Positions 20,671 to 22,360 of a stretch of DNA of 64,000 bases are shown one piece after another; positions within the stretch are counted from its first letter, which is position 1; every line of letters begins with the position of its first letter. Below the pieces are notes generated by a model, which saw only the letters and a program-made list of their open reading frames with translations, was not told the DNA's origin and ran no database searches. Source of the stretch: Zygosaccharomyces rouxii (lineage: Eukaryota > Ascomycota > Saccharomycetes > Saccharomycetales > Saccharomycetaceae); the NCBI RefSeq assembly GCF_000026365.1, contig NC_012990.1, positions 744,001-808,000 on the forward strand. The letters run 5' to 3'. Both the position numbers and the translations under genes were made by a program.

Positions 20671-20780
20671 TACACGTCAGTCAAGTACCGGAGAATTTCT
20701 TATGGGTTTCCATTAGTTAGTATTCGATAATTTAGTCGGTTGATTTGATCTTCTCTTTCCATGTTCGCTTCCTCGTAGAG

Positions 20781-20787
20781 CACAAAA
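20781..20787 (+). promoter_or_regulatory. Mid-sporulation element core (CACAAAA) upstream of ADY4
   Basis: CACAAAA fits the core CRCAAAW of the Ndt80-bound mid-sporulation element. It lies 82 bp before the inferred ADY4 start, and ADY4 acts in meiosis. A 7-bp match is weak alone; the gene context makes it worth listing. Confidence 0.4.
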
Positions 20788-20868
20788 TGATTTACTTACG
20801 ACGACACACTGACACCAACGTTGAATAATGTATAAAAATAAAAAGGATCAAATTTTTAGCCAATCCTG

Positions 20869-22360
20869 ATGAATTATAATGGTAAGTAGAGGGTATAAAA
20901 TACCCGTGAGGTTTTCTATATGGATTTTTGAATGTAAACAAGGTGACTAACATTATGATAAAGAATTGTGCTACGCAGGGGGAAAGTTTGAATACCATAG
21001 TCTTTTAGAATATCTGGATGAAGAGATTGAATTGATTGCCAAAGAATTTCAAACATCTTTGAAATATTCAGAACCACTTTATCGTAAAGTTACAAAATTG
21101 ATACTTATATTATGTCCAGAAGAGAAGATGAGAATGATATTTGACAAGAGTTGTTATACAAGATTACAGTTAGAAGGACTTATGAACAAGGAGATGTTAA
21201 AATACGTGGAGTTAGATTTTAATGTGAATCCTAAAGTTGTTGCCAAAGCATTAGTGAAGTCTACCGCTGATCATCCAAATGTTTTTTGTTATAAAGTTTT
21301 CCTCCTTTTGGCCAACAAGGGCATTTTAGCTTATCTTGCAAACTTTGATGGTGACTATTTGAAAGGATTCATTGACTTTAGATGGTGCCTGCAGTTTATC
21401 TACTATATTAAGCGACTGGATCCACTAGAAGGTGAAATTAAGAATTTTTTGGAGGATTGTGAGAGGATGTTTGCCATACTATGTGCTAAATGTCTAATGA
21501 AGGAAATTGAAGAAAAAGGTGATAAACAGATTACATCTCAATTAGAAATTTTGAGATTGGATGAAGGTAGTATTTTACAGAGTTTGTTGTTTACGGTGAT
21601 AGACTGTACGGATCCTTCCATGATGACTACTGGTAATTATTTAGATCGATACATTTTGAGTATGTTCTTTGAATCACTAGGTGAAATTGAAAGATTCATA
21701 GCAATTTTCAAAGGTAGTTTGGCAGAATATGAATGTATGCCCAATGTTAATGACCTGGCACTTAGAGTTCAAAGGGAGCATTTGAACGATACGATAAGGC
21801 GGTACATTTTATCGATGACCACCAAATTAAATGGTGATCCAGCCATTATTCGCTGTATACATAAAATTCTGGAATGTTTGGTCTTATATGGTGGAGTTCA
21901 CATGGGAATAATACAATTTTTCTATTCACTGAAGAAATACTATCTGGGGGTTTTATCAGCGGCTTCCGAACTTCCATTTGATAGTAAATTGACTAAAGAA
22001 TGTGTCACTCTACTGGACAAGATTTGCCAAGAGTGGGATAATGTGAAAACTAAAAGCAATTCAAGATTGATTCAATCGCCGCAGATCTTACTGAAATCCA
22101 TGTTTGGTGAATTTGTTATAGTAGATGAGGTCTTTGATGAAAATCGACCACTAGAACATCATCATGATTTATCGATTATGTTAAGCTCAATGAAATTAAA
22201 AGTTAAGCATAAATGGCTTGGTGAAGCTCATACTTTTAAAGAATATTCAAATTCCATGTGGAAAATTGGAATGGAATGGGTAGTCTTTTGGAAAGACTGT
22301 TACATAGATAATCATGAAGAATTACCTTTGGAAATGATTCAAATATTTAATGGCATTTAA
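20869..22360 (+). CDS. ADY4: Meiotic spindle pole body protein Ady4, spliced: join(20869..20881, 20979..22360)
   Basis: Component of the meiotic outer plaque of the spindle pole body, needed to start prospore membranes in S. cerevisiae (YLR227C, 493 residues). The uninterrupted frame (to 22360) has no in-frame ATG before about residue 55; its apparent start at 20966 is TTG, and a stop precedes it at 20948. A spliceosomal intron solves this. ATG at 20869, exon 1 of 13 nt, donor GTAAGT at 20882, branch site GACTAAC at 20945-20951, acceptor CAG ending at 20978. Joining restores the frame (MNYNGGKFEYHSLLEYL...) and gives 464 residues. A family-like motif FRWCLQFIYYIKR is present near residue 140. 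The nearer AAG at 20961-20963 would also keep the frame. Context agrees: it sits between RAD9 and SPR28 with BUR2 beyond. The splice model is inference. Confidence 0.85.
20882..20978 (+). other. ADY4: Probable spliceosomal intron in ADY4 (97 bp)
   Basis: Donor GTAAGT (20882-20887), branch GACTAAC (20945-20951, one mismatch to TACTAAC, branch adenosine 20950), acceptor CGCAG ending at 20978, 28 nt after the branch point. Exon phase is consistent on both sides. The intron also contains GGGTATAAAATACCC (20891-20905), a 6-bp stem with 3-nt loop whose right arm, extended, reads ATACCCGT (7 of 8 to the Mer1 splicing enhancer AYACCCUY). Confidence 0.75.

What the first reader, a model, noticed from the sequence alone, without database searches (positions are those of the whole stretch)
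20869..20990. Hidden 97-bp intron restores the start of ADY4
The long ADY4 frame has no usable ATG and is closed by a stop at 20948. ATG 20869 plus donor GTAAGT (20882), branch GACTAAC (20945-20951) and acceptor CAG (to 20978) join in phase and yield a full N-terminus after a 13-nt first exon. Simple gene callers would start the gene about 50 residues too late or at a TTG. The nearer acceptor AAG (20961-20963) is also in phase and would add five residues. I know of no annotated intron in S. cerevisiae ADY4.
Basis: partly seen in the sequence, partly recalled or inferred. Interest (0 to 1): 0.75.

Follow-up and report, generated by a model that had tools for sequence, protein, structure and literature searches.

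The report
Small intron in yeast sporulation gene
In the yeast Zygosaccharomyces rouxii the sporulation gene ADY4 very probably begins with a tiny exon and a 97-base intron, an ordinary kind of feature in an unexpected gene, with a hint that a meiosis-specific splicing factor may help remove it.

Summary
ATG 20869, a 13-nt exon, GTAAGT 20882, GACTAAC 20945-20951 and CAG 20976-20978 join in phase to a 464-aa Ady4 protein. Unspliced, the first in-frame ATG is 21128, which drops 54 residues, most of them conserved. Shuffled upstream sequence gives a comparable model in 27 of 20,000 trials. Of 24 genome sites with GTAAGT, 40-70 nt and ACTAAC, four give a gene model of at least 100 codons that needs the splice: ADY4 and three others that look like real genes. 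An independent assembly keeps the same frame across the G-run, against the extra-base rival. Two relatives give weaker support: one N-terminus equals the spliced product in length, another matches the branch region. New here: the intron carries AUACCCGU, 7 of 8 letters of the Mer1 splicing enhancer, 12 nt behind the donor; the genome has MER1, and its MER2 intron has the exact enhancer 13 nt behind the donor. Mer1 control is a hypothesis, with results against it too. No RNA data were available, and the deposited annotation could not be seen. Best reading: a real spliceosomal intron, a new member of a known kind.

The parts
20869..20881 (+). Exon 1 of ADY4 (ATG AAT TAT AAT G), 13 nt
   Evidence: Joined in phase to the long frame
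20882..20978 (+). Proposed intron, 97 nt
   Evidence: Signals and phase; 27 of 20,000 shuffles hold a comparable model
20882..20887 (+). 5' splice site GTAAGT
   Evidence: GTAAGT also fits splice-requiring models in L007, L008 and L022
20891..20905 (+). Inverted repeat GGGTAT-AAA-ATACCC, predicted RNA hairpin
   Evidence: In the minimum-energy and the centroid structure
20900..20907 (+). ATACCCGT, 7 of 8 letters of the Mer1 enhancer AYACCCUY, 12 nt behind the donor hexamer
   Evidence: enhancer AUACCCUU from PMC6380292 (passages)
20945..20951 (+). Branch site GACTAAC; contains the TAA stop 20948-20950 that closes the unspliced frame
20961..20963 (+). Alternative acceptor AAG, in phase, adds five residues
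20976..20978 (+). Favoured acceptor CAG
   Evidence: P0005 N-terminus has the length of this product
20979..22360 (+). Exon 2 of ADY4, stop codon included
   Evidence: homologs
20779..20788 (+). Match to the middle sporulation element DNCRCAAAWD (consensus recalled)
   Evidence: 25 such matches in the 64-kb window, so about 1 in 12 stretches of 200 bp would have one by chance
20831..20837 (+). TATA-like element upstream of ATG 20869

Best explanation
20882-20978 is a U2-type spliceosomal intron after the fourth codon of ADY4 in Zygosaccharomyces rouxii. Shown from sequence: the splice signals, the phase, and that no AUG opens the conserved N-terminus without the splice. Inferred: transcription starts upstream of 20869, probably from a sporulation promoter; U1 binds GUAAGU, the branch forms at GACUAAC, and the 13-nt exon is joined to 20979 (CAG), perhaps sometimes to 20964 (AAG). 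Unspliced RNA would give only a six-residue peptide from AUG 20869, so Ady4 synthesis depends on splicing. A further step, held at about one in three, is that Mer1 helps this splicing in meiosis (see the section on the most novel reading).
For: Exact signals and phase. 27 of 20,000 shuffles hold a model. Of 24 genome sites with GTAAGT + 40-70 nt + ACTAAC, four give a splice-requiring model of at least 100 downstream codons: ADY4, L007, L008, L022; the last three look like Pef1, Erv41 and Efm5, names recalled. ADY4's branch-to-acceptor distances, 12 (AAG) and 27 (CAG), lie in the 8-34 nt span of the 18 other splice-requiring models of that size among the 54 loci. The N-terminal stretch behind the splice aligns across relatives. 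P0005 MVFNESQFGY equals the spliced MNYNGGKFEY in length. The start of P0003 matches the branch region as well as 2 of 300 shuffles do.
Against: No RNA evidence. GACTAAC is not the common TACTAAC (76 of 99 GTATGT-type sites end in TACTAA). The GTAAGT...ACTAAC pair is not enriched genome-wide (24 against control 63). P0003 has a methionine four codons before FEYY and may not need a splice. DNA of relatives could not be read, so donor and branch conservation is untested.
Confidence: 0.88

Rival explanations
1. Assembly error: one base is missing in the G-run 20978-20982, and translation starts at ATG 20955 without splicing.
Against: P0001, an assembly with two other residue changes (KWFGET for KWLGEA), reads CYAGGKFEY without a break, so it has the same base count modulo 3 there. 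It would also leave the donor and branch unexplained.
Confidence: 0.03
2. No splicing: translation starts at a non-AUG codon such as TTG 20966.
For: A bacterial-style caller put the start there in P0001, and the product would keep the conserved N-terminus.
Against: Initiation at UUG is very poor in yeasts (established knowledge), and ATG 20869, 20879 and 20955 upstream would be met first.
Confidence: 0.04
3. The real start is ATG 21128, giving a 410-aa protein.
For: First in-frame ATG without splicing; P0008 is also called with a late start.
Against: The 54 residues before it align well with P0002-P0007 and, more weakly, with Saccharomyces Ady4.
Confidence: 0.03
4. The intron is real but constitutive, and the AUACCC element is a chance by-product of the hairpin; Mer1 plays no part. 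(A rival to the Mer1 step only.)
For: 7 of 8 match, not exact; shuffles reach 7 of 8 in 4.0% and the core in 3.8%; 5 of 99 GTATGT-type sites also reach 7 of 8. The motif lies in a predicted hairpin. GUAAGU pairs well with U1 (established knowledge). L007 and L008 use GTAAGT without the core.
Against: The core AYACCC is in 0 of 99 GTATGT-type sites, and MER2 of this genome has the exact enhancer at nearly the same distance from its donor.
Confidence: 0.6

Closest known systems
Budding-yeast spliceosomal introns near the 5' end of the gene
   Same: Short intron, very short first exon, donor/branch/acceptor of the known kind; L028 and L037 are other such sites with exons of 6 and 3 nt
   Different: Donor GTAAGT and branch GACTAAC instead of the common GTATGT and TACTAAC; sits in ADY4, whose Saccharomyces relatives are read with a normal start
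Mer1-dependent meiotic introns (MER2, MER3/HFM1, SPO22, AMA1 in S. cerevisiae; PMC6380292, passages)
   Same: Sporulation gene, donor other than GTATGT, AUACCC core shortly behind the donor, MER1 in the genome
   Different: 7 of 8 letters, in a predicted hairpin; a donor that pairs well with U1; ADY4 is not among the four genes named there
Meiotic outer plaque component Ady4 (PMC10890087 and PMC6776394, passages)
   Same: Orthologous gene by sequence, beside RAD9-type and septin genes
   Different: The passages on Saccharomyces and Ashbya Ady4 mention no intron; 'intron' does not occur in PMC6776394

Membership tests
Yeast U2-type spliceosomal intron | 5' splice site, branch site and acceptor in order at usual distances | tested here: met
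   GTAAGT, GACTAAC 63 nt on, CAG 27 nt (AAG 12 nt) behind the branch site
Yeast U2-type spliceosomal intron | Removal restores a reading frame that is closed without it | tested here: met
Yeast U2-type spliceosomal intron | Signals conserved in relatives | tested here: inconclusive
   Only proteins of relatives were readable; P0003 fits the branch region (2 of 300 shuffles as good), donor not visible
Yeast U2-type spliceosomal intron | Spliced RNA observed | not testable with these tools
   No RNA data on hand
Mer1-dependent intron | Enhancer AYACCCUY (AUACCCUU) in the intron | tested here: inconclusive
   7 of 8, core AUACCC exact; not a full match
Mer1-dependent intron | Non-consensus 5' splice site | tested here: met
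   GTAAGT, not GTATGT; but GTAAGT is used by other genes here and is not weak for U1
Mer1-dependent intron | MER1 gene in the genome | tested here: met
   L067 protein with one KH domain is identical to ZYRO0C10472p; its Z. mellis relative P0016 is named as required for MRE2-dependent splicing
Mer1-dependent intron | Splicing lost without Mer1 | not testable with these tools
   Needs a deletion strain

The most novel reading that the evidence does not exclude
The ADY4 intron belongs to the Mer1 splicing regulon of Z. rouxii. Mer1 would then gate, through splicing, the spindle-pole plaque that starts the spore membrane, besides recombination and cell-cycle genes. The AUACCC element pairs with GGGUAU right behind the 5' splice site, so the hairpin could be a switch that Mer1 opens. 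The regulon would have been rewired: SPO22 of this genome has an intron without the core, while ADY4 has one with it.
Probability: 0.33. Interest if true: 0.6.

Novelty: new member of a known kind. Interest (0 to 1): 0.38.

Why it matters
It corrects the start of a sporulation protein in a food yeast with few introns (162-173 reported, PMC4202332). If the Mer1 step is true, a small meiotic splicing network changes its members between related yeasts, and one deletion with a few RT-PCRs would test it.

Tried and rejected
Sequence error: disfavoured by P0001. P0001's 464 aa first looked like a spliced product, but its start MCYAGG is the unspliced frame from TTG, so it is no evidence for splicing. 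Pfam gave nothing above cut-off for the long frame. The motif pair by itself is not enriched. A profile search for more relatives added only P0010-P0012, which by sequence are Saccharomyces-like. The first version of the gene-model script did not turn the minus-strand loci and was replaced. The region as a whole folds no better than shuffles (191 of 200 at least as well).

Papers. Z. rouxii + intron + ADY4: 0 papers. ADY4 / intron / splicing: 49,204 papers hold two of three; the list puts papers with more terms first and none of the 15 listed holds ADY4. PMC4202332: passages and one section, no 'ADY4' in the main text; supplements not seen. PMC2876123: passages, no ADY4. 'AYACCCUY': 0 papers; the degenerate form is recalled, AUACCCUU is from PMC6380292. 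These searches cover only open-licence papers.

Background check. The 99 GTATGT-type sites are 99 of the 100 that one search listed, out of 119 counted; I left one row out when pasting, and it has no core and a best match of 5 of 8. Four of the 99 are cut at 80 letters in the listing, chance sites are among them, and the SPO22 intron is one of them.

Full report
Organism and gene. The genome has 9,764,635 bases in 7 contigs. Its MER1-like protein is 100% identical to ZYRO0C10472p of Zygosaccharomyces rouxii, so the window is Z. rouxii; the size fits strain CBS 732 (recalled). The frame 20951-22360 encodes a relative of S. kudriavzevii Ady4p (E 7e-41, 29% identity). It lies between a gene with the Rad9 Rad53-binding domain and a septin gene, and an F-box gene is near. 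The names RAD9, SPR28, BUR2 and MFB1 for the neighbours are recalled; the BUR2-like frame had no Pfam match. In S. cerevisiae Ady4 is part of the meiotic outer plaque (PMC10890087, passages).

Observation. Every element is at its stated place. The frame is closed by TAA 20948 in the branch site, and its first ATG is 21128. From ATG 20869 unspliced RNA encodes six residues; with the splice to CAG 20978 it encodes 464. The nearer AAG 20963 is in phase too. In 20,000 dinucleotide shuffles of 20677-20986, 27 held an acceptable model.

Genome context. GTAAGT + 40-70 nt + ACTAAC has 24 sites, backwards control 63. GTATGT + 40-70 nt + ACTAAC has 119 sites, control 45. I built gene models at all 24 GTAAGT sites and at the first 30 of the 119 GTATGT sites. 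Splice-requiring models with at least 100 downstream codons came from 4 of 24 and 15 of 30. The four are ADY4, L007, L008 and L022; the last three look like Pef1, Erv41 and Efm5 (recalled, from the sequences). So GTAAGT appears to be a working donor in this genome, and L022 uses a branch other than TACTAAC (AACTAAC). ADY4's distances from branch to acceptor, 12 and 27 nt, are within the 8-34 nt of the other 18 models.

Relatives. The first search gave nine proteins, the profile search three more; their DNA could not be read. P0001 (464 aa, 99% identity) starts MCYAGGK, which is the unspliced frame with M at TTG 20966. Two residue changes mark it as another assembly, probably another strain, and its unbroken frame argues against a missing base in the G-run. 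P0003 starts MTNTKAINCSMSETFEYY: xTGACNAAY fits GTGACTAAC of the window, which occurs in 45 of 5,000 shuffles, and the whole prefix fits as well as 2 of 300 shuffles do. Against this, P0003 has a methionine four codons before FEYY and may start there; and in the phase of Z. rouxii only its AAAG could be an acceptor (by eye). P0005 MVFNESQFGY equals the spliced MNYNGGKFEY in length, which favours CAG over AAG; its start codon was not seen. P0006 and P0007 are called 13 residues late and P0008 later still, which would fit an intron but may be the caller's choice. The Saccharomyces proteins P0009-P0012 start three to five residues nearer to the conserved tyrosine.

Mer1 lead. In S. cerevisiae Mer1 binds AUACCCUU in the introns of MER2, MER3/HFM1, SPO22 and AMA1, which have non-consensus 5' splice sites (PMC6380292, passages). 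MER1 is old in budding yeasts and lost in Saccharomycodes (PMC8567612, passages). Z. rouxii has MER1 beside an SSB-type HSP70 gene (SSB by eye). I found the target genes by Pfam (SPO22, HFM1, MER2) and AMA1 by its neighbour ALG10/DIE2 and by eye. All four have in-phase intron models. MER2: GTTAGT, exact ATACCCTT 13 nt behind it, TACTAAC. HFM1: GTAGAT, ATACCCCT 25 nt behind it, CACTGAC as a guessed branch. AMA1: GTACGT, ATACTCGT (6 of 8), TACTAAC. SPO22: GTATGT, TACTAAC, no core, best match 6 of 8; its frame is open through the intron. ADY4: ATACCCGT 12 nt behind the donor. So of the four known targets two have the AUACCC core here and two do not.

Weight of the lead. In 99 of the 119 GTATGT-type sites the core AYACCC occurs in none; a best match of 6 of 8 within 40 nt occurs in 32 and of 7 of 8 in 5, so the matches of AMA1 and SPO22 are ordinary. 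Shuffles of the ADY4 stretch reach 7 of 8 in 4.0% and the core in 3.8%. L009, a GTAAGT site without a gene model, also holds the core. The ADY4 core is the 3' arm of a 6-bp hairpin. The lead is therefore suggestive only; I hold it at about one in three.

Promoter. A middle-sporulation element match lies at 20779-20788 and TATA-like words at 20831 and, inside the intron, at 20894. The element would occur by chance in about one in twelve stretches of 200 bp (25 in 64 kb). The start of the transcript is unknown; one driven from the inner TATA-like word could not contain ATG 20869.

Conclusion. A real intron is the best reading (0.88), a new member of a known kind. The Mer1 link is the bold reading that the evidence does not exclude. 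Whether the intron is already in the deposited annotation could not be seen.

Noticed in passing
20891-20905: Perfect 6-bp inverted repeat GGGTAT-AAA-ATACCC just behind the 5' splice site, overlapping a TATA-like word at 20894.
   Followed up: partly
L079:957-1021: The MER2 intron candidate has an unusual donor GTTAGT whose TAG closes the unspliced frame, an exact Mer1 enhancer, and acceptors only 5 and 8 nt behind TACTAAC.
   Followed up: partly
L077:731-782: The SPO22 intron candidate is open in frame, so unspliced RNA would encode a longer protein; it has consensus donor and branch and lacks the AYACCC core.
   Followed up: partly
L078:1002-1110: The HFM1 gene has a probable intron with a poor donor (GTAGAT) and a CACTGAC branch-like site, as if splicing there needed help.
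   Followed up: partly
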